The notes beneath the pieces are model-generated. The model was not told the DNA's origin and made no database searches. It worked only from the letters and a program-made list of their open reading frames with translations. The position numbers and the translations under genes are program-made. From Gemmatimonadaceae bacterium (GTDB lineage: Bacteria > Gemmatimonadota > Gemmatimonadetes > Gemmatimonadales > Gemmatimonadaceae): a stretch of DNA of 64,000 nucleotides. The first letter of the stretch is position 1. The number at the start of each line of letters is the position of its first letter. Of this stretch, positions 19,235 through 34,444 are shown in pieces. The stretch lies in contig JBBJNV010000018.1 of the NCBI GenBank assembly GCA_037721215.1, positions 1 to 64,000 of the forward strand. Direction: 5' to 3'.

Positions 19235-19726
19235 TCAATTGCGCCTAAGTCGGGTTCGCGTTAGGGAGAGACTCGAGAAGCTCCCGAAACGATCATGGAC
19301 CGAGACGAATAGACCGTCCGGTGGTTCAACTTGGCCAACGATCACTAACAGAAATCCGCTGAGCGCATGTTTAGATCTGCAGACTGAGTCCGAGATGCTG
19401 GCGATGTCGAGGCCAGACGGACCCGGAAGCGCCTCGGGGTGCGTGTGCCAATCGCCCACATAGTGAAGGCCTTCGCCATGGCGGCTATCGATCTCTAGTT
19501 GTTCGGCCGCCCGATCGGGAACGTAACTCGTTCTCGTACGTCTGTCGGTGCGACGTGGTCCCGTCGCCTCCTCGATGATGATGTGGGACAGGGAGAGGCG
19601 AGCAAAAAGCTGTCCGCCCGCTTCCCGTTGACGCCAACGCATCTGTCTATATCTCCGGAACTTCTGGACGACCTTCTCAGGCAAGACGAGAACTTGGCCC
19701 GAACTTCCGATCGGGTATTCGAGCAT
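19235..19726 (-). CDS. cap3: CBASS Cap3, JAB/MPN isopeptidase
   Basis: The 163-residue protein has a complete JAMM zinc site: Glu35 (EAGGQLF), His94-x-His96, Ser104 and Asp107 (WHTHPEALPGPSGLD). In type II CBASS, Cap3 removes the CD-NTase from its conjugates and counteracts Cap2. Start ATG 19726 overlaps the cap2 stop as TGATG, a sign of translational coupling; an in-frame start 12 codons earlier would lie inside cap2. It is the last gene of the CBASS operon. Confidence 0.92.
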   Translation of the reverse strand: MLEYPIGSSGQVLVLPEKVVQKFRRYRQMRWRQREAGGQLFARLSLSHIIIEEATGPRRTDRRTRTSYVPDRAAEQLEIDSRHGEGLHYVGDWHTHPEALPGPSGLDIASISDSVCRSKHALSGFLLVIVGQVEPPDGLFVSVHDRFGSFSSLSLTRTRLRRN

Positions 19727-21492
19727 CACGCACACGTGGGGCAGTCGGGTCGCCGTTCCCATGGCCGCTTAACCAGCGAATTGGCTGTCCCAGGGGTTGC
19801 AGTCCAAGAGCCGCCGCACGCCTTGAGGAATTCCTCCTCGCCGCTCCAGACCACTTCCGAGGATTGCGAGACGTCCTGGGTAAGGTATGTCAGAGTCACG
19901 CCTGCTATCGCAGAAACGACATGCCCAAGCGCGACTGCGCCGTACGGTTGGTAGTTCGCGCCGCAGGCGGGCTCCTGGCGAACCGTTGCAGCGTTCCAGC
20001 TTGTCCTGGTCGATACTGCAACGCCCACGTTGCTCATGCCGCAATTGAAGCAGCCGCCCTCACCGCAGATCGCTACCGCATGTCCCGCGCAAGCAAAAGG
20101 CTCGGTCCATCCGTATACGATAGGAAATCGACGGCCGCTCGCTACGTGCCACTCGTTCAATCCACCCTCTGCCTCCCAATCGCCCATCGCGCTGAAGATC
20201 AGGGTCGCCGTTGAATACACGTCAGGCGACGTACGCATAACGTCTTGCCATCGTCGGGGGTGAGCCGAGATGTCGCCAACGTGGGGATGATCCCTTCGGA
20301 TATGTTCGGTGAGCGCTTCCGCCTTGTTGCGGCCGACGGATGACGCGCCGAGGGGATGTCGCGTCGTGTTGGCCCATTTTAGGCTGTCAGGATCTATCAG
20401 CGTCATGTTCGACACCCCGGCCTGAATCAGCGCCAAGGCCACGGGGGCACCAACAGAGCCGCAGCCGAGAACAACAACGCGGGCGGCGAGCAAGCGCTCA
20501 ATGTGAGCGGATTTATTTCGACCGAGAATCCAGTCGGTGTCGACACGCTCGACCGGCGACCATACAACTTGGCCTCCGGCAACGTAGCGCTGAATAAGCA
20601 TCCGCGCGGGCATCTTGCCTGGCCTAAACCCGTCTTGGACAGGGTTCCGGCTGCGGCCCTTCGGATAGGTTTTGGCAAGCGGACGCCACGCACTCACCAC
20701 GGCAACGCATGGTCCGTTCGACGTGGGAGCGCCGAGCGCGATTACGATCCGATTCGGATTCGCCTTCACCAGCCGCTCGAGAATCTCGATTCCACCTGCG
20801 GACCGGACCAGTTCCAATAGAGCTCCCCCGCTGGCCGGGTACTCCGCGGGCGTCAGCGCAGCATCCAGCCAGAGAAAGAGTCCACCAGACGGCAAGTCGT
20901 CGACATCCTTTTCACCGCGACGGTTTGTGAGCCACCGCGAGATGTCTTGATCCGAATCGGCCAGCAGGGCGAATGGTTTCCCGTTCCACACGCGAATTGC
21001 CCTTGTCGGCTGCGCAGGAGCAAGAAGGCTGTAGAAGGCCTCGTGCTTCTCCGGCAGCGCCCAATTCCAGTACGACAGAAACTCCTGTCGAAAGTCGTCG
21101 GTATTGGAACCTGCAACGCACTCTTCGATCAGCTCACACGCAGAGCCGATGGTCACACGCGCAGCACCCGCAGGATTTGTCGGATCGACTGCGGCCGTAC
21201 CCGGCAGGAGACACAAGACGCCGTCGCGCTCGACGTGTGGCCACGTCAGAAAATCCGGTCGGTCGATGAGTGCCGCGCGAGGGGCGGAGCGCGGGAACCA
21301 TTCATCGACGAGGAGATCAAGCCGCCGTGTGCCGTCGCTGAACTGAATCGTGAACCGCCAGCCAGCGACAAATCCGCGTCCCTCGTATACTCGCAACTCG
21401 GTAGAACCGAGTTGCACGGCCGAACCCGGAAGCTCTCGGAGCCACGCCGAAACAGCAGCCGTCGCGGACTGAAAGCCTCGCGCCCCGCTCAC
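19726..21492 (-). CDS. cap2: CBASS Cap2, E1-E2 fusion conjugating enzyme
   Basis: This 588-residue protein has an N-terminal E2-like domain with candidate catalytic Cys94 (DGVLCLLP). A C-terminal ThiF/E1 domain follows, with nucleotide-binding GCGSVG at 343-348, Asp367/369 (LIDPDS) and active-site Cys510 (EPACGANYQ). Cap2 joins the C-terminus of the CD-NTase to targets in a ubiquitin-like reaction and primes it for signalling. It starts with GTG, 2 bp after the cdn stop, and overlaps cap3. Paired cysteines in CFNC and CPTC may bind zinc. Confidence 0.94.
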   Translation of the reverse strand: MSGARGFQSATAAVSAWLRELPGSAVQLGSTELRVYEGRGFVAGWRFTIQFSDGTRRLDLLVDEWFPRSAPRAALIDRPDFLTWPHVERDGVLCLLPGTAAVDPTNPAGAARVTIGSACELIEECVAGSNTDDFRQEFLSYWNWALPEKHEAFYSLLAPAQPTRAIRVWNGKPFALLADSDQDISRWLTNRRGEKDVDDLPSGGLFLWLDAALTPAEYPASGGALLELVRSAGGIEILERLVKANPNRIVIALGAPTSNGPCVAVVSAWRPLAKTYPKGRSRNPVQDGFRPGKMPARMLIQRYVAGGQVVWSPVERVDTDWILGRNKSAHIERLLAARVVVLGCGSVGAPVALALIQAGVSNMTLIDPDSLKWANTTRHPLGASSVGRNKAEALTEHIRRDHPHVGDISAHPRRWQDVMRTSPDVYSTATLIFSAMGDWEAEGGLNEWHVASGRRFPIVYGWTEPFACAGHAVAICGEGGCFNCGMSNVGVAVSTRTSWNAATVRQEPACGANYQPYGAVALGHVVSAIAGVTLTYLTQDVSQSSEVVWSGEEEFLKACGGSWTATPGTANSLVKRPWERRPDCPTCA

Positions 21493-21494
21493 CC

Positions 21495-22559
21495 CTACGC
21501 GTAGCGTCCGCCGCCCTGCTTCTGGACAGCGTCGCGTGCTCCTTCAGATTGGCCTGACTCGATCAACAGCCCGGCGCTCAGGACTGAAGCAGATCCGGCC
21601 GTCGCGGCTTGCGTGCTCTCCTCGAAGCGATTGCTGAAGAAGTCGGTGTTGAACACGTTGTCCCAGCACTTCACCGCCTTCTCGCGCGTGCAGTTTGCCT
21701 CGATGAGCGGCGCCAGCCAGTTGATCGCATCCGACAGACGGTCCTTCAGGTTCACCGCCTTCGGATCTTTCTCGCCGTTGGTGATCGTCTCGTTCAAGGT
21801 CACCGGATGCTTGACGACCAAGTCGAGGTTCAGACGATCACGAATCGCCTTCATCGTGTCGTAGAGGGCGGCATCTTCTCGGTTGACGTTGCCACGGAAG
21901 CACTCCGCGACCAGCTTCGTGATTCCGAAGCCGCTCAGGAGCCTCCAGCTGTTTCGGCTCTTAGCGAACTTCTTGATCTCGCGCGTAATACGGCGGAGCT
22001 GACGACCGTTACTCGTGTCGCCGCTCTGACGATTGTTCTCTGTGTCGAACCACTTCGTAACATCGCGCGCGTCCGAACGCTTCCACTCGCTGCTCGCGAG
22101 CTCGTAGTGCACGCTTTCCTGCCCGAAGGCATCCCTTGTTACGACCCGTCGATATACCGGAATGTCGATGTGGTACCCAGCGTCGTAGACGACGCGCACG
22201 CAGTTCTTCCGAACCTCAGGTCTTGTCTTGAAGCAACCGTCATCGGCTGCGTCTCGAACCATCTGCCGCGCGTCAAGCGGCGACAGATCGCCCCCCTTCG
22301 GCCCAACGAGATCGGTCATCTCGAAGTAGACGCCGTCGTCGATGTCGTAGTTGTTCTCGGGATGCTGGGTCATCGTCCTCATCGCGTACGATCCCTGACC
22401 CTTGAATTCGATAGGTCTGGGGTTGCTCGCGTTCTTCAGGCCTTCCTTAACGCGGTCGCGGTTGGCGTTGCGCCGGTCGCGCATGGCGGTGCGCTCGGGC
22501 TGCGGGAGCGTAATTTCATCGTCGTGATACGCCAGGATGTCATCTTCGCAATCGAACAT
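21495..22559 (-). CDS. CBASS cyclic oligonucleotide synthase (DncV-like CD-NTase)
   Basis: The 354-residue enzyme has the CD-NTase active site: Gly56-Ser57 (GQGSYAMRT), Asp72-x-Asp74 in YDIDDGVYF and a third Asp132 (YHIDIPVY). On infection such enzymes make a cyclic di- or trinucleotide that activates the effector; the DIDDG context is closest to the DncV type, which makes 3'3'-cGAMP, though the product is not proven here. The tail ends GGGRYA, a short flexible end suited to Cap2 attachment. ATG 22559 is chosen for the TGAGGAG Shine-Dalgarno. It lies 96 bp after capV. Confidence 0.93.
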   Translation of the reverse strand: MFDCEDDILAYHDDEITLPQPERTAMRDRRNANRDRVKEGLKNASNPRPIEFKGQGSYAMRTMTQHPENNYDIDDGVYFEMTDLVGPKGGDLSPLDARQMVRDAADDGCFKTRPEVRKNCVRVVYDAGYHIDIPVYRRVVTRDAFGQESVHYELASSEWKRSDARDVTKWFDTENNRQSGDTSNGRQLRRITREIKKFAKSRNSWRLLSGFGITKLVAECFRGNVNREDAALYDTMKAIRDRLNLDLVVKHPVTLNETITNGEKDPKAVNLKDRLSDAINWLAPLIEANCTREKAVKCWDNVFNTDFFSNRFEESTQAATAGSASVLSAGLLIESGQSEGARDAVQKQGGGRYA

Positions 22560-22655
22560 AGCATTCTCCTCAATACTCAGCGTCCGCGTGCTTGAAGTTC
22601 GGCTCCCACAGCGAACGCGGCATGGGTGCACGACGTGGTTTCGTTACCTGATCCT

Positions 22656-23753
22656 TCAACCGGCCTTCGTCACCTCAGCGGCTGGCGCATCGGCAAACAG
22701 CGCGGTAATGAGCCGTCCCTCGCGACTCCCTGCATCGGCACACCGGCTGTTGGTCATGTCAGCGTCGGTGCGGGCCTGATTAGCGAGCGCATCTATTGCC
22801 TCGGGCCTGGTATCGTCGAGGTCCAAGTACGGAAGCAGAGCCGCAGGCACTTGATCCCGCGGAAACCGCAGGATTTCGCAAGGCCGGTTCAGATGCTTCA
22901 CCAGCATCTTGGCGATGTTGTCGTATGCAAACTCCTGGGCGTCGACCGACAGAGCTGCAGCGGCGCCGCCGAATTTCCAGCCTGCGAGGTCGCGGTGGAC
23001 GTCGGTCCTGGCGACCTGTTCACCTGCCGGGCGCGGACATGTGCCAAGGCAGAAAATCTCGATCGGCTGGTCACGCGGGGACATCGCGAGGGCATCGACG
23101 AGGCCCACGAGCACCGGGTTGTTGGCCCACAAGCCGCCATCGACAAACGCGCGGCAACCTTCAACGCCTCCGTCAACGCAATCGACGATCGCGATTGAGC
23201 GATACACCGGTGCCGCCGTCGTCGCCAGGCAAACATCGACGAGCCGTGTAAGATCATCGCGGTGATTCGTCGTGGCTGAAAGGTGCGGCGTCTTGAACAC
23301 CCAACTCCGGTGCTGACTCAGCTCGACGGCGGCAACCGCAAGAGCGATTCCACGTCGTTCGTAGACTTCGGCGAGCGTTGCATTCCCAAATCGGTCGTGC
23401 AGCGCCGCCTCAAGGGCCTTGGAGCCCGATCGCAAACTGCCTTTACGGGCGAGTAAGTCGATGCCAAGGTCAACGCCAGCACGCTGAGGCAGGCGACGAG
23501 GAAAAATGGCGGGGCCATGCTTCCTGTAGAACTCAACGAGGTCGGCCGGGAAAATTCCAAACGCCAGTGCGCATGCGATGATGCCGCCGGTGCTTGTGCC
23601 AACGATCAGGTCGAACGCGGCGCCCACGTCGATCGCTGGAACATCCCGGCGGCGCGCGAACGTGGCGGCGAGCGACGCGAGGTACGCGGCGGTGTACGTC
23701 CCGCGCATGCCCCCGCCGTCCAGACTCAGTACACGGAACGGCCGGACTGTCAT
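22656..23753 (-). CDS. capV: CBASS effector phospholipase CapV (patatin-like)
   Basis: The 365-residue patatin-like hydrolase has an oxyanion loop DGGGMRG (12-18), nucleophile elbow GTSTG with Ser54, and catalytic Asp205 in FVDGGLWANNP. In CBASS, CapV degrades membrane phospholipids when it binds the second messenger of the neighbouring CD-NTase, killing the infected cell. It leads the four-gene CBASS core. A 30-bp palindrome matching the one at the STAS/HTH gene lies 27 bp upstream of its start codon, so its expression is likely controlled there. Confidence 0.94.
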   Translation of the reverse strand: MTVRPFRVLSLDGGGMRGTYTAAYLASLAATFARRRDVPAIDVGAAFDLIVGTSTGGIIACALAFGIFPADLVEFYRKHGPAIFPRRLPQRAGVDLGIDLLARKGSLRSGSKALEAALHDRFGNATLAEVYERRGIALAVAAVELSQHRSWVFKTPHLSATTNHRDDLTRLVDVCLATTAAPVYRSIAIVDCVDGGVEGCRAFVDGGLWANNPVLVGLVDALAMSPRDQPIEIFCLGTCPRPAGEQVARTDVHRDLAGWKFGGAAAALSVDAQEFAYDNIAKMLVKHLNRPCEILRFPRDQVPAALLPYLDLDDTRPEAIDALANQARTDADMTNSRCADAGSREGRLITALFADAPAAEVTKAG

Positions 23754-23780
23754 GAGTACGACCTATACTGAAGTATTGAC

Positions 23781-23810
23781 TTCTGTTTCGTCGGTTTCAT
23801 TGAAACAGAA
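23781..23810 (-). promoter_or_regulatory. Putative operator 1, upstream of capV
   Basis: Arms TTCTGTTTC (23781-23789) and GAAACAGAA (23802-23810) form a perfect 9-bp inverted repeat around a 12-nt spacer. The whole 30-bp site matches operator 2 at 26 of 30 positions, including spacer bases. It starts 27 bp before the capV start codon, within the 108-bp gap after the STAS/winged-helix gene. Confidence 0.75.
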
Positions 23811-23861
23811 TGTAAGAGGGTGCCCAAGGAAATCAAGCCGAAGATACGCCGAATTGCCTGA

Positions 23862-24431
23862 TCAGCCCGAAACTCGGATTGAGTAGTAACGGTGTTCCCG
23901 CCCCCCGCTGGGCGACGTGCCCTCAACGCGTTCGAGCAACCCAGCCCGCCAAAGGGTCGTGAGTCGGCTTGAGGCCGTGGAGAGGTTAAGGTCCGCAAAA
24001 GTCGTCGATGCGACGCGGCCCTCGGACCATGCCTTCTCCAGCGTTGTGAACTGTTCGGCGGAAAGTCGCTTCCCAAGCACAGTGGGGTGAAAGGGGTCAT
24101 CCGCGACGAGCAACGCCTCCCCTCGTTTTTCGAGCGCGAGGGCGAGGTTTTCGCGAATGTCGGGGTCGGTCAGACCCCTCGCGATGAACAGCAACTTGGG
24201 GCGGTGCTTTCGGAGCGTCTCGACCACGGCCTCACGCTGGAACGAAACATCCGAGCGGGTTAGGCCAGAATAGTCGATCGGCACCAGGGTGCCGTCACTT
24301 TGGTTAAGCAGCTCAAGGTTGATGCGGCCGAACACCCACGCGCCAAACTCTGTGCCCCAGGCGTCTTTTTCGTCCAAATAGGCCTGAAGCACGATAGGGA
24401 ACTCGTGCCGATTCCGTTTCATCGGTTGCAT
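23862..24431 (-). CDS. STAS-like (DUF4325-type) winged-helix protein, putative CBASS regulator
   Basis: The 189-residue protein has a STAS-like first part (about residues 18-105; WGTEFGAWVFGR, then KHRPKLLFIARGLTDPDIRENL). Its C-terminal winged helix (about 118-185) has a helix-turn-helix at ASTTFADLNLSTASSRLTTL and a wing near REHRYYSI. It follows a GHKL ATPase gene by 50 bp and precedes capV by 108 bp, all on one strand. A palindrome overlaps its own start codon and a near copy precedes capV, so it probably binds both. Start is ATG 24431 or 24422, or a GTG further in. Confidence 0.75.
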   Translation of the reverse strand: MQPMKRNRHEFPIVLQAYLDEKDAWGTEFGAWVFGRINLELLNQSDGTLVPIDYSGLTRSDVSFQREAVVETLRKHRPKLLFIARGLTDPDIRENLALALEKRGEALLVADDPFHPTVLGKRLSAEQFTTLEKAWSEGRVASTTFADLNLSTASSRLTTLWRAGLLERVEGTSPSGGREHRYYSIRVSG

Positions 24432-24441
24432 CGAAACAGAA
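24412..24441 (-). promoter_or_regulatory. Putative operator 2, overlapping the STAS/winged-helix start
   Basis: Arms TTCCGTTTC (24412-24420) and GAAACAGAA (24433-24441) pair at 8 of 9 positions around a 12-nt spacer that contains the start codon. The site differs from operator 1 at only 4 of 30 bases. Binding here would block expression of the winged-helix gene, a typical autoregulatory layout. Confidence 0.72.
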
Positions 24442-24481
24442 CCTACGCGAGGTGACTTGGAGCCGCAATGCAGGCGTCGGG

Positions 24482-25483
24482 CTACTTCGTCCGAAATTCG
24501 ATGTAGATGTGAGTCCCCCTAAGGCTTCCAACGGAGTTGTCGATCTCAGCGTTGTGGACGGGTCGCTGAATCGTGGCGGGGTGCAGAACAATGCGCGCGT
24601 TGGGAGTCCGCACGAAGAGGGTCGATTCGTACCGAGCGGCCAGCGCAGCGCACTGAGGAAGACCGCAGCCGCGGCCTGCATGGGCGCCGTGTCGTGAGAG
24701 GCCCTGATTGAACGCCTGAATGACGAGTTCGGCATCGCTTCGCCGGGCTGCTCGTTGATCACGGATGCCTCGAATCGACGCCGGAATCCCGATACCGCTG
24801 TCGGAAACTCCGACTTGGATGCGAGGAGCTCGCGACCTGTGGTACGCTTGGAGGCACACGAATCCCGGCAGCGTGGTTCGACTATGGCTGAAAACATTGT
24901 CGACCAGCTCCCCAAGAACCGTGAAGACGTGATTCCGAAGCCGGCGCGTTTGCTCGTCGTTGCTTGGGTAGAAATTGACGAGGCTGTCGACCACCTGCCC
25001 GACGATCCGTTGCCTCTCCCCGCCCGTGACGCCGGGAATCAGTGGAGCAATCTCAACGAGACCGCTAGCTTGGCCTCTGTGAGAATCGGCACCCGAGATC
25101 GCCGGACGCGGCGGAGAGGTGGTGATTCGCGCGGACAGTAGTTGCAGAAACCCGTTGCGATCCAAGTAGCTGAACAGGCCTTCCGGGGTTGCAAACTCTA
25201 GATGAATCAATCCAGTGCCGACAGCCGCCAACTGGTTGAGGAAGGACAGCAGCCAAAGGCCGACGCCGGCGGGCACGGCGGCTCGCGCGGGGAACGTGAA
25301 AACGACGGCTCCACCAGCGCGGGCATGAGCCACCAATCGATTTCCACGCAGGATGTCCTCGAATTGACCGAGGGAGAGCCACCGAGCGGGAAGCTCCACT
25401 CGAAAAGGCGTGGACGCTGCCGAGCGATATCGGCTGCCAACCTCGGGCTTTGTCATCGGGACGCGCCCAAGCCTTCTGACCAT
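24482..25483 (-). CDS. GHKL ATPase with STAS-like N-terminus (anti-sigma-kinase-like)
   Basis: Residues about 30-120 resemble a STAS fold (VVFTFPARAAVPAGVG, then IHLEFATPEGLFSYLDRNGF). Residues 180-330 form a GHKL ATP-binding domain: N-box ELVDN (192-196), G1 box DSGIG (228-232) and G2 box GRGCGL (270-275). There is no phospho-acceptor His domain or membrane segment, so it resembles SpoIIAB/RsbW-type switch kinases rather than sensor kinases. It precedes the STAS/winged-helix gene and probably acts on that partner. ATG 25456 (MTKPEV) is an alternative start. Confidence 0.8.
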   Translation of the reverse strand: MVRRLGRVPMTKPEVGSRYRSAASTPFRVELPARWLSLGQFEDILRGNRLVAHARAGGAVVFTFPARAAVPAGVGLWLLSFLNQLAAVGTGLIHLEFATPEGLFSYLDRNGFLQLLSARITTSPPRPAISGADSHRGQASGLVEIAPLIPGVTGGERQRIVGQVVDSLVNFYPSNDEQTRRLRNHVFTVLGELVDNVFSHSRTTLPGFVCLQAYHRSRAPRIQVGVSDSGIGIPASIRGIRDQRAARRSDAELVIQAFNQGLSRHGAHAGRGCGLPQCAALAARYESTLFVRTPNARIVLHPATIQRPVHNAEIDNSVGSLRGTHIYIEFRTK

Positions 25484-25603: not shown

Positions 25604-25846
25604 TCACATGTAACTCAACGAAGGGTCCGCGTGGCCTTGAAAGCGAACACGGCGTAATTCATCTGTACAGCGTTGAACACCAAGGGACGCATGAGCACGC
25701 GTATAGATCCTTACAGTTCTCAAATCAGGATGACCAACCAGATCCTGAATAGTCTGAATGTCGGCGCCCGACCCCAGGAGGTGTGTCGCAAACGAGTGTC
25801 TCAGTGAAAGGCACGTCGCTCGCTTCAATATTCCGCTGGCGCGCAT
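25604..25846 (-). pseudogene. C-terminal remnant of a tyrosine recombinase (integrase)
   Basis: The 80-codon frame keeps only the end of a phage/integron-type integrase: [20 protein letters not shown] with the catalytic Arg and His, then [15 protein letters not shown] with the second His and the nucleophilic Tyr. The N-terminal and central domains are absent, and no longer frame continues upstream. It sits at the right edge of the defence island. The rest of 25484-25959 holds nothing else that I recognise. Confidence 0.8.
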
Positions 25847-26421: not shown

Positions 26422-26700
26422 TCACATCGCGTACAGCCCCAGCCACTCCGGCCAGTTCCCGCTCAACTCAAAAAACTCCTCGAAGTACACCAGCCCTTTC
26501 TCTTCGAGATACTCCACCACTTCTCCGATCATATCATCCGACGGCAGCGGCCCCATCACCACCAACGCCCCTTCAACCCTGAACTCGGCATCCGTCAGAT
26601 TGAACCGCTGATCGATCTCCGACCGCGCCAGCCCCGACCGCTCGAACGCTTCCTTCCTGATGAATATCGATGGCAATCCAGCCGGAACGGCGATAGGCAT
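26422..26700 (-). CDS. Hypothetical 92-residue acidic protein
   Basis: ATG 26700 is chosen for the GGAGAG Shine-Dalgarno just upstream. The product has no signal peptide or membrane segment. It contains a helix-rich segment (RSEIDQRFNLTDAEF) and an acidic stretch (DDMIGEVVEYLEEKG), and ends WPEWLGLYAM. I do not recognise the family. It is divergent from mnmG, with 64 bp between start codons. Confidence 0.6.
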   Translation of the reverse strand: MPIAVPAGLPSIFIRKEAFERSGLARSEIDQRFNLTDAEFRVEGALVVMGPLPSDDMIGEVVEYLEEKGLVYFEEFFELSGNWPEWLGLYAM

Positions 26701-26764
26701 CTGCTCTCTCTCCAAACATGATGAAGCCGCCAATTCCTGGCGCAGGCAGCGTTACCTTCAATGT

Positions 26765-28702
26765 ATGCCAGGCAGACCACACTCACAGTCGGTTGAAGCT
26801 CACTTCGACGTCCTCGTAGTCGGCGCAGGACACGCCGGCACCGAAGCCGCCGTCGCCGCCGCCAGACTCGGCGCACGCGTAGGCCTGGTCACCAGCGCGC
26901 TCGAAACCATCGGCCAGATGTCCTGCAACCCGGCCATCGGCGGAGTCGCCAAGGGCACGGTCGTCCGCGAAGTCGACGCACTCGGCGGAATCATGGGCCG
27001 CGCAACAGACATGGCCACGCTCCAATTCCGCATGCTCAACCGCAGCAAAGGGCCCGCAGTGTGGGCACCCCGCGCGCAGTGCGATCGCGGACTCTATCGC
27101 AGAGCGGTACGCACGCTCATCGAACAGCATCAGACGCTGCACACCATCCAGGGCACCGTCGCACGGCTCATGATGTCCGAAGGATCTCGGGTTACCGGCA
27201 TCGAAACCATCGAGGGACGGCGCTTCACCGCAAAGTCAGTCGTGATCACCACCGGCACCTTTCTCCGCGGCCGCATCCATATCGGCACCACGACCAATCT
27301 CGCCGGCGGCCGTGCCGGCGAATCATCGACGACCCATCTCGCCGAGCAGTTGGAAGAAGCGGGACTGACGGTGGCGCGGTTCAAGACCGGAACACCACCG
27401 CGCATCGATGGCCGCTCAGTGAGCTACTCAGCGCTCGAACGCCAGGACAGCGAGATCGACCAGTTCGATTACTCATGGTCGCATTTCCACAACGAACCGC
27501 GCCGGAATGGCACGACGACTCGCCATCCGGAACAGATGCCATGCTGGATTGCCCATATCGACAGGCAAGCGAAGCAGATCATCGAGGACAACATCAACCT
27601 TTCGGCGATGTACGGCGGCGCGATCGCGTCGCGCGGCCCTCGCTACTGCCCCTCGGTCGAAGACAAGGTGGTCAAGTTTCCAAACGCCGAGCGTCACCAG
27701 CTCTTCCTCGAGCCGGAAGGTCACGACACCTCCGAGCTATACGTGAACGGACTGTCGACATCACTGCCCGCTCCCGTCCAACTCGAGATCATGCGCACGG
27801 TGCCGGGCCTCGAAGACGTTCGCATGAACCGCGCTGGTTACGCAATCGAGTACGACTACTACCCGCCCACTCAGCTCGACGCGACGCTTCAGGTGAAGTC
27901 CATCGACGGGCTCTATTTCGCCGGCCAGATCAACGGAACCACCGGGTACGAGGAAGCCGCGGGGCAGGGAGTGGTCGCTGGACTCAACGCTGGCTTGTCC
28001 GCACTCGAGAGGGATCCTATAGTCTTCGGCCGCGAGACTTCGTACATCGGCGTTCTCGTAGATGATCTGGTTACCTGCGGTGTAGACGAACCCTACCGCC
28101 TCTTCACATCCCGCTCCGAGTTCCGGCTCACCGTCCGCCAGGACAACGCACTCGGCCGCCTAGGACATTTTGGAATCGAGCTCGGACTCTATTCATTAAA
28201 GGAGCGCGAGACAATCGACCACCGGCTCGACGAAGAACGATTGATTCGCGAGCTCGCCGAGCAGACGACTATCTCACCGTCGCAGGCGGCGCCGTTGCTG
28301 GCTTCAGCGGGAAGCGCCGCCCTCGATCAACCCGTGAGAATCGTGGAGCTCGCCCGCAGGCCCGGCGTTGCACTGAAAGATCTGCTCGATGCCGCGGCAG
28401 TGAGCAATGATTTCTCCGCGGAGGCGATTCTCACCGCCGATCTGGAGATCAGGTACCAGGGCTATTTCGAGCGGGAGAGAGAGCAGGCCGAGCGTATGAA
28501 GCAGATGGGTGGCTTTCCGCTTTCATCCGATCTCGCGTACGACGGAATGAAGTCGCTCTCTTTCGAGGCACGGCAGAAGCTCGCCACCGTACAGCCGCGC
28601 ACGCTCGCGCAGGCCGCGCGAATTCCGGGCGTCAGTCCGAGCGATATTCAGAATCTGGTGATCGAAGTGGAGCGGGGAAGACGGAAGCCGGCGACTGTTT
28701 GA
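26765..28702 (+). CDS. mnmG: tRNA uridine-5-carboxymethylaminomethyl(34) synthesis enzyme MnmG
   Basis: The 645-residue FAD-binding protein has the dinucleotide motif GAGHAG (20-25), the MnmG signatures MSCNPAIGG and KGPAVWAPRAQCDR, and the C-terminal helical domain ending PGVSPSDIQNL. With MnmE it installs the carboxymethylaminomethyl group at wobble U34 of several tRNAs. ATG 26765 is chosen, since the frame upstream lies outside family homology. Its end overlaps the convergent EamA gene by 71 bp. A diverged partial copy of its 3' end exists at 33928-34444. Confidence 0.97.
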   Translation: MPGRPHSQSVEAHFDVLVVGAGHAGTEAAVAAARLGARVGLVTSALETIGQMSCNPAIGGVAKGTVVREVDALGGIMGRATDMATLQFRMLNRSKGPAVWAPRAQCDRGLYRRAVRTLIEQHQTLHTIQGTVARLMMSEGSRVTGIETIEGRRFTAKSVVITTGTFLRGRIHIGTTTNLAGGRAGESSTTHLAEQLEEAGLTVARFKTGTPPRIDGRSVSYSALERQDSEIDQFDYSWSHFHNEPRRNGTTTRHPEQMPCWIAHIDRQAKQIIEDNINLSAMYGGAIASRGPRYCPSVEDKVVKFPNAERHQLFLEPEGHDTSELYVNGLSTSLPAPVQLEIMRTVPGLEDVRMNRAGYAIEYDYYPPTQLDATLQVKSIDGLYFAGQINGTTGYEEAAGQGVVAGLNAGLSALERDPIVFGRETSYIGVLVDDLVTCGVDEPYRLFTSRSEFRLTVRQDNALGRLGHFGIELGLYSLKERETIDHRLDEERLIRELAEQTTISPSQAAPLLASAGSAALDQPVRIVELARRPGVALKDLLDAAAVSNDFSAEAILTADLEIRYQGYFEREREQAERMKQMGGFPLSSDLAYDGMKSLSFEARQKLATVQPRTLAQAARIPGVSPSDIQNLVIEVERGRRKPATV

Positions 28703-33640: not shown

Positions 33641-33649
33641 GGGATGCGG

Positions 33650-33909
33650 GAGAATGTATGCGCAGCCCGGTCATTTGGCAGCCGGTCAAGGCGCGTCGGG
33701 ACTTTCGCGCCATCCAGAAGCACGGCGATAGTGATTGAGTCCTTGTGCACATCCATCCCGAGCCCCTTGGTTTCATCGGTCTCATCGGTCTCATCGGTCT
33801 CCAGTCCCTTATCGCTGAGCGCGCCAAGCTGCCGCAGCAAGCCTTGGTTCATATTTGTTCTCGCATCGGCCAATTTGCTTTGCTTCGGCACGCCTTTGTG
33901 CCTGTGCAA
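33650..33909 (-). mobile_element. IS110-family transposase remnant (N-terminus only)
   Basis: The minus frame reads GLGMDVHKDSITIAVL, then RLDRLPND, matching the start of the IS110 DEDD transposase, including its first catalytic Asp. The rest of the transposase is missing. The lead-in is a 9-bp unit (TCATCGGTC) repeated three times at 33773-33799, encoding E-T-D repeats. The fragment lies exactly between the GT2 gene and the mnmG-like fragment, at a rearrangement junction. Confidence 0.75.
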
Positions 33910-33927
33910 CCGGGGCCTCCCCGCACA

Positions 33928-34444
33928 TCTCTACGAGCCCGGCGAACGCAGGATCATCGAATACCGTATCGACGAGGGGAAAACAGTACGCGATTTCGCC
34001 GAGCAGCCGCCGATTACCCCGCATGAAGCTGCGCCGTTGCTGGCGGCTGTAGCAAGCTCGGCAATCGATCATCCCGTGACGATCATCGAGCTGGCCCGCA
34101 GGCATGGCGTCGCCCTCGGCGATTTGCTCGAAGCAGCGGGAGCAGGCGAGAATATTTCCAGCGAAGCTGTACTCAAGGCCGATCTGGAAATCAGATATGA
34201 AGGCTATTCCGAGCGGGAGCGAGCGCAGGCCGAGCGGATGAAACAGATGGGGGATTTCGCGCTCACTGCTGAGATTCCGTATGACGGTATGCAGTCATTG
34301 TCGTTCGAGGCCCGGCAGAAGCTGGGGTCCATTCAGCCCCGCACGCTCGGTCAGGCCGCGCGCATTCCGGGAGTCAGTCCGAGCGACATCCAGAATCTGC
34401 TGATCGAGTTGGAGCGGGGAAGACGGAAGGGGGCTGTGGGCTAG
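33928..34444 (+). pseudogene. Partial mnmG copy (C-terminal domain only)
   Basis: From ERRIIEYRIDEG to LIELERGRRKG this frame aligns along its whole length with the last ~170 residues of MnmG at 28190-28700. Blocks such as SFEARQKL and ARIPGVSPSDIQNL are intact. By eye, identity is roughly 70 % in protein. The FAD-binding part is missing, and upstream sequence is IS110-derived. It therefore looks like a relic of duplication or of replacement by a related copy. Confidence 0.85.

What the first reader, a model, noticed from the sequence alone, without database searches (positions are those of the whole stretch)
23781..24441. Two near-identical 30-bp palindromes at the regulator start and the capV promoter
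The sites at 23781-23810 and 24412-24441 match at 26 of 30 bases, including the 12-nt spacer, and share the arm GAAACAGAA. One covers the start codon of the STAS/winged-helix gene and the other precedes capV. Identical operators at a regulator and at its neighbouring defence operon suggest one repressor controlling both itself and CBASS.
Basis: seen in the sequence. Interest (0 to 1): 0.82.

Follow-up and report, generated by a model that had tools for sequence, protein, structure and literature searches.

The report
CapS operators controlling a CBASS operon
Two matching 28-30 bp DNA palindromes mark where a repressor called CapS most likely shuts off both its own gene and a neighbouring anti-phage suicide operon until the partner kinase CapK senses DNA damage; the circuit was published in 2026, and this is a diverged copy of it in a Gemmatimonadota genome.

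Summary
The two palindromes match at 26 of 30 bases, and the arm pattern occurs nowhere else in the 3.5 Mb genome. The 189-residue gene is a CapS (STAS + winged helix) and the 333-residue gene before it is a CapK (GHKL kinase): the DNA-damage-responsive pair published for Bub, CBASS and other immune operons (Chambers et al., EMBO J 2026, PMC13373217). Here it sits in front of a type II CBASS (capV, CD-NTase, cap2, cap3). Relatives on Vibrio, Acinetobacter, Citrobacter and Enterobacter plasmids and in E. coli carry the same 28-bp frame, TCTGnTT-N14-AAnCAGA, at the same two positions: the capS start and the next operon's promoter. Part of that set was fetched after the pattern was fixed. The window member differs in detail: TTC-type rather than TTAA half-site, both sites wide, no CapK N-terminal HTH, two recognition-helix residues replaced. 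The kinase serine, kinase asparagine and ssDNA-sensing tryptophan are kept. One testable refinement: capS-promoter sites published as narrow also fit the wide 28-bp frame. Binding was not tested.

The parts
23781..23810 (-). Operator at the capV (CBASS) promoter; 28-bp core 23782-23809, TCTGTTTC-N12-GAAACAGA
   Evidence: Perfect 9-bp arms; exact match to the 28-bp frame shared by capKS loci
   Evidence: same position as the capS-promoter site of other capKS loci
23862..24431 (-). capS: 189-aa STAS + winged-helix repressor
   Evidence: Only PDB sequence matches are the two solved CapS proteins (9z72/9z73 E 7.8e-7; 9z71 5.2e-6); phospho-acceptor Ser and wing Gly-Gly kept
24482..25483 (-). capK: 333-aa GHKL kinase without the N-terminal HTH
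   Evidence: Pfam HATPase_c 6.9e-8; 26-37% identical to CapK of capKS loci, with Trp68 and Asn218 equivalents; in-frame stops upstream
22656..23753 (-). capV: patatin-like phospholipase effector of CBASS
   Evidence: PADLOC PDLC00758 1.7e-97; NCBIfam CBASS_lipase 2.7e-56, just under its cut-off
21495..22631 (-). CD-NTase (DncV-like cyclase)
   Evidence: Pfam PF21654 5e-23; PADLOC cyclase 1.4e-147
19726..21492 (-). cap2: E1-E2 fusion
   Evidence: PADLOC E1-E2 1.4e-200
19235..19762 (-). cap3: JAB isopeptidase
   Evidence: PADLOC JAB 7.1e-63
23809..23836 (-). Possible weak promoter of capV: TTGATT (23836-23831), 16 bp, TACATT (23814-23809), overlapping the operator's first base
   Evidence: Read from sequence; not found by the consensus scan, so inference only
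24440..24468 (-). Possible weak promoter of capS: TTGCGG (24468-24463), 17 bp, TAGGTT (24445-24440), in the same register to its operator
   Evidence: Read from sequence; not found by the consensus scan, so inference only

Best explanation
The two palindromes are operators of CapS, the STAS/winged-helix repressor encoded between them. A CapS dimer binds each site over the promoter/start region of capS and of capV, and so holds down both its own gene and the capV-cdnA-cap2-cap3 CBASS operon. When DNA is damaged, single-stranded DNA activates CapK, encoded just upstream. CapK phosphorylates the conserved serine of CapS (Ser63 here), the dimer falls apart, and both promoters open. Shown here: the sites, their uniqueness, the gene identities, the kept key residues, and the conservation of frame and position in other capKS loci. 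Shown elsewhere, for Enterobacter and Vibrio proteins: binding, phosphorylation, ssDNA activation. Inferred: that the diverged window proteins do the same.
For: Pair unique in genome. CapS matches only the solved CapS structures in the PDB by sequence. Ser54 equivalent, Asp52, Glu58 and wing Gly169-Gly170 kept in CapS; Asn218, Glu214, His222 and ssDNA-contact Trp68 kept in CapK, while Trp68 is absent from the housekeeping GHKL/STAS pair of Gemmatimonadota. The 28-bp frame was fixed from the first loci and then found at the capS start and at the next operon's promoter in loci fetched later (L060, L061, L065; E. coli L072-L074). Over 20 regions, 27 sites with up to 2 mismatches against 0.12 in shuffles, and spacing 14 stands out from 2-26. 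L061 encodes WP_001567865.1, the CapS of the published binding work.
Against: No binding data for this protein. CapS is only 22-27% identical to CapS proteins of Pseudomonadota, and two residues called absolutely conserved DNA contacts, N145 and K151, are Thr here and in L003/L004. The core TTAA half-site is TTC-type here. The closest CapS relatives (L003, L004; 51%, 49%) have no CapK and no 28-bp site; L004 has only a 19-bp palindrome over its start codon. No consensus promoter was found.
Confidence: 0.9

Rival explanations
1. The palindromes are operators, but of another regulator encoded elsewhere in the genome, and CapS acts only through protein contacts.
For: N145 and K151 are replaced in the window CapS; the closest CapS relatives lack the 28-bp site.
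Against: The site pair occurs only at this locus; the same frame sits at the same two positions beside capS in distant plasmids and E. coli, where CapS itself was shown to bind (PMC13373217).
Confidence: 0.06
2. They are RNA elements: each inverted repeat folds as a hairpin over a start codon and controls translation of capS and of a 16-codon leader coupled to capV.
For: Both lie in or near transcribed sequence and can form a 9-bp stem; each holds an ATG at the same register, and at the capV site that ATG opens a 16-codon frame whose stop overlaps the capV start.
Against: Folding is no better than shuffles (z -0.8 and -1.5); no Rfam match; the frame with fixed 28-bp span recurs in Pseudomonadota at sites where double-stranded DNA binding was measured.
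Confidence: 0.03
3. They are remnants of a recombination or duplication event, for example a duplicated 5' end of capS, with no regulatory role.
For: The two sites are direct repeats 631 bp apart, each with an ATG in the same register; an integrase fragment lies upstream of capK.
Against: Similarity stops at the palindrome edges, and similar sites recur at both positions in unrelated loci.
Confidence: 0.01

Closest known systems
CapK-CapS of Enterobacter roggenkampii and Vibrio cholerae (Chambers et al., EMBO J 2026, PMC13373217)
   Same: Gene order capK-capS-immune operon; STAS-wHTH repressor and GHKL kinase with the key serine, asparagine and tryptophan; a palindromic site at the capS promoter and one at the operon promoter; half-sites in the same 28-bp frame
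   Different: Phylum; CapK lacks the N-terminal HTH (deletion had no effect in the published reporter); N145 and K151 are Thr; half-site TTC-type instead of TTAA; capS site is clearly wide; one site before the operon instead of two tandem copies
CapKS locus of Sphingobium plasmid pSHV1 (L054) before a multiubiquitin/E1 operon
   Same: Also lacks the CapK N-terminal HTH (37% CapK identity); its weak operon site has a TTCA-N10-TGAA core like the window's TTC type
   Different: Controls a ubiquitin-like operon, keeps N145 and K151; outer arms match the frame poorly
VapKSC toxin-antitoxin (same paper)
   Same: CapK-like kinase without HTH plus STAS protein with the conserved serine
   Different: VapS ends after the STAS domain in a short tail and binds a VapC toxin; the window CapS has a wHTH and no VapC follows
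CapW and CapH-CapP regulators of CBASS
   Same: DNA-damage-linked repressors next to CBASS and other immune operons (as described in PMC13373217)
   Different: WYL-domain or HTH-plus-peptidase proteins, not a kinase and STAS pair

Membership tests
CapK-CapS immune-operon controllers | capK immediately followed by capS, upstream of an immune operon | tested here: met
   24482-25483, 23862-24431, then capV-cdnA-cap2-cap3, all minus strand
CapK-CapS immune-operon controllers | CapK GHKL kinase domain with the active-site Asn (N218) | tested here: met
   HATPase_c 6.9e-8; Asn in VDN aligned to N218
CapK-CapS immune-operon controllers | CapK ssDNA-contact Trp (W68) | tested here: met
   ARWLS aligned to W68; absent from core GHKL paralogues
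CapK-CapS immune-operon controllers | CapK N-terminal HTH domain | tested here: not met
   Frame starts after it, in-frame stops upstream. Not required for induction in the published reporter; also absent in L054, so treated as a variable feature
CapK-CapS immune-operon controllers | CapK middle STAS domain | tested here: inconclusive
   Aligns along its length with CapK, but no Pfam STAS match
CapK-CapS immune-operon controllers | CapS STAS domain with conserved phospho-acceptor serine (S54) | tested here: met
   DVSFQ, Ser63, aligned to S54
CapK-CapS immune-operon controllers | CapS wHTH with N145, K151, G169-G170 | tested here: inconclusive
   Gly-Gly kept; N145 and K151 are Thr. Published N145A weakens binding only 3-5 fold
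CapK-CapS immune-operon controllers | CapS-site palindromes at the capS promoter and the operon promoter | tested here: met
   28-bp frame at both positions, 0 and 1 mismatch; core TTC not TTAA
CapK-CapS immune-operon controllers | CapS binds, represses, and is released by CapK phosphorylation on ssDNA | not testable with these tools
   Needs purified proteins and reporters
VapKSC | vapC toxin gene in the operon; VapS without wHTH | tested here: not met
   capV follows capS; wHTH region present and aligned to CapS
Type II CBASS | CD-NTase + effector + Cap2 (E1-E2) + Cap3 (JAB) | tested here: met
   PADLOC and Pfam matches

The most novel reading that the evidence does not exclude
CapS operators are generally composite. 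A wide 28-bp pair of TCTGnTT half-sites is present at both promoters, with a third half-site at the narrow 19-bp spacing inside it. The published contrast of narrow at the capS promoter and wide at the operon promoter would then be a special case, and two interlocked CapS dimers would nucleate at each promoter. The window, with two nearly identical wide sites each holding an inner half-site, would be the cleanest example.
Probability: 0.4. Interest if true: 0.5.

Novelty: new member of a known kind. Interest (0 to 1): 0.4.

Why it matters
It extends the CapK-CapS circuit to a diverged member in Gemmatimonadota and suggests that what is conserved across phyla is the outer TCTG/CAGA arms and the 28-bp span, not the TTAA core. 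That gives a sequence rule for finding CapS-controlled immune operons, and a direct test of how CapS reads its two promoters.

Tried and rejected
CRISPR-like or Rfam RNA element: no Rfam match, only two copies. RNA hairpin: not better than shuffles. Sigma-70 promoters at the sites: none by consensus scan. A second operator in front of capV, as in the Pseudomonadota loci, or one before capK: none with up to 4 mismatches apart from two weak chance-like hits in or near the capK reading frame. A third genomic copy in G351: lies inside an unrelated frame, taken as chance. Virus collections: no relative of the window CapS; one distant wHTH-only relative of Enterobacter CapS (L075). No match among phage records (with the Acinetobacter CapS as query). 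AlphaFold model of CapS from three sequences had pLDDT 72; Foldseek gave nothing useful, and the second aligner listed STAS proteins (YtvA, stressosome) among its best at Z about 4, not above unrelated rows. The PDB copy used for folds may predate the CapS entries. Co-variation of N145T/K151T with the TTC half-site was considered but not claimed: Sphingobium CapS keeps N and K yet has a TTCA core.

Full report
What was checked. The two sites are real and exactly where stated. They match at 26 of 30 bases. The arms are TTCTGTTTC/GAAACAGAA with a 12-nt spacer; the second site has one arm mismatch. The pattern with these arms occurs at no other place in the 3.5 Mb genome. A looser 28-bp form with one mismatch occurs six times, two of them here and four scattered, against four for the reversed control. 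In 395 Gemmatimonadota genomes the near-strict form occurs only at these two sites and once inside an unrelated frame.

What the genes are. On the minus strand run a 333-aa GHKL ATPase (24482-25483), the 189-aa STAS/winged-helix gene (23862-24431), a patatin-like capV, a DncV-like CD-NTase, an E1-E2 cap2 and a JAB cap3: a type II CBASS with two extra genes in front. No Pfam, NCBIfam or PADLOC family covers the 189-aa protein.

How the answer was found. Relatives of the pair were sought on plasmids. They lie directly upstream of immune-type operons: multiubiquitin/E1 operons in Sphingobium, Citrobacter and Enterobacter, an E2/E1 operon in Acinetobacter, a CBASS with SAVED and a CD-NTase in Vibrio gigantis, and a type I restriction system a little further on in another Vibrio plasmid. 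Searching these loci for palindromes gave TCTGGTTAA-N10-TTAACCAGA, TCTGATTAA-N10-TTAATCAGA and similar, each spanning 28 bp from TCTG to CAGA, as in the window. The pattern TCTGnTT-N14-AAnCAGA was fixed then. It was tested on loci fetched afterwards: L060, L061 and L065 have it at the capS start and at two places before the next operon, allowing up to two mismatches, and E. coli loci L072-L074 likewise. Over 20 start and gap regions there are 27 sites with up to two mismatches; shuffles give 0.12 on average; among spacings of 2 to 26, only 14 stands out at one mismatch (18 sites, next best 5 for spacing 5). The Enterobacter and E. coli loci are related to each other, so these are not 20 independent cases, and the first loci helped to define the pattern. 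The Sphingobium locus fits only weakly.

The published system. A literature search then showed that this pair is CapK-CapS (PMC13373217). CapS of E. roggenkampii, WP_001567865.1, is the protein encoded in L061. It binds its own promoter and the next operon's promoter, is phosphorylated on Ser54 by CapK, becomes monomeric and lets go; CapK is switched on by single-stranded DNA, which needs Trp68. The authors list 443 loci, 75 before CBASS; their text does not name Gemmatimonadota, and their supplementary tables could not be read here, so whether this phylum is among them is unknown.

Does the window member belong? By sequence, yes. The only PDB sequence matches of the 189-aa protein are 9z71 and 9z72/9z73, taken to be the two CapS proteins of that paper. 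Ser54 corresponds to Ser63; the wing glycines are kept. The kinase keeps Asn218 and Trp68; the housekeeping GHKL/STAS pair of Gemmatimonadota, a more distant relative, has the Asn but not the Trp. Departures: CapK has no N-terminal HTH, as in Sphingobium, and its deletion was harmless in the published reporter; N145 and K151 of CapS, called absolutely conserved, are Thr here and in L003/L004; the half-site core is TTC-type, not TTAA.

A refinement. The paper describes a narrow palindrome (TTAA-N1-TTAA) at the capS promoter and a wide one (TTAA-N10-TTAA) at the operon promoter. In nearly all loci here the capS-start site also satisfies the 28-bp wide frame, including the Enterobacter one (TCTCCTTAAATTAACCATAAGAAGCAGG, two mismatches), whereas the exact narrow TTAA pair within the 28-bp capS site is seen only in Citrobacter, Enterobacter and E. 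coli. Within 28-bp sites there is an excess of a third half-site at the 19-bp, narrow spacing (z 7.6 against shuffles of the middle; 14-bp spacing also rises, z 6.3). Both window sites show it (5 of 6 and 4 of 6 matches). This suggests composite operators with two interlocked dimers. It would also fit the authors' finding that 36-bp narrow and wide DNAs give first complexes of equal mobility, because their 36-mer contains the full frame. This is a post hoc sequence argument and needs binding tests.

Verdict. The finding is correct and its interpretation holds, but the circuit is known. What is new is one diverged member, and a sequence rule for CapS sites that the published data could confirm or reject.

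Noticed in passing
L003:2007-6546 and L004:1975-6516: CapS relatives (51% and 49% to the window CapS, serine kept) without CapK, divergent from an SMC/RecF-like ATPase (weakly mad3-like) and an APH/TCAD9 phosphotransferase (weakly mad6-like), beside BREX genes in L004. The phosphotransferase could be a substitute CapS kinase.
   Followed up: partly
L016, L017, L018, L020, L022: A housekeeping-looking GHKL + STAS pair between a PfkB-type kinase and a cystathionine gamma-synthase (FtsE-like ABC protein further on) in Gemmatimonadota, distantly related to CapK-CapS but without the ssDNA-contact Trp.
   Followed up: partly
window 23750-23800, minus strand: A 16-codon frame (MKPTKQKSILQYRSYS) starts at the ATG inside the capV operator and its stop overlaps the capV start codon (ATGA); the capS ATG has the same register in its operator.
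   Followed up: no
window 25604-25846, minus strand: Fragment of a tyrosine recombinase/integrase (Phage_integrase 2e-12) just upstream of capK, suggesting that the capKS-CBASS block was acquired.
   Followed up: no
window 33644-34444 versus 26660-28702: A frame whose C-terminal part resembles the end of the MnmG/GidA-like protein encoded at 26660-28702, possibly a partial duplicate.
   Followed up: no
L056:8591-12757: In the Acinetobacter plasmid two ISAba1 copies and the genes between them separate capS from its E2/E1 operon, yet both operators before the operon are intact.
   Followed up: no
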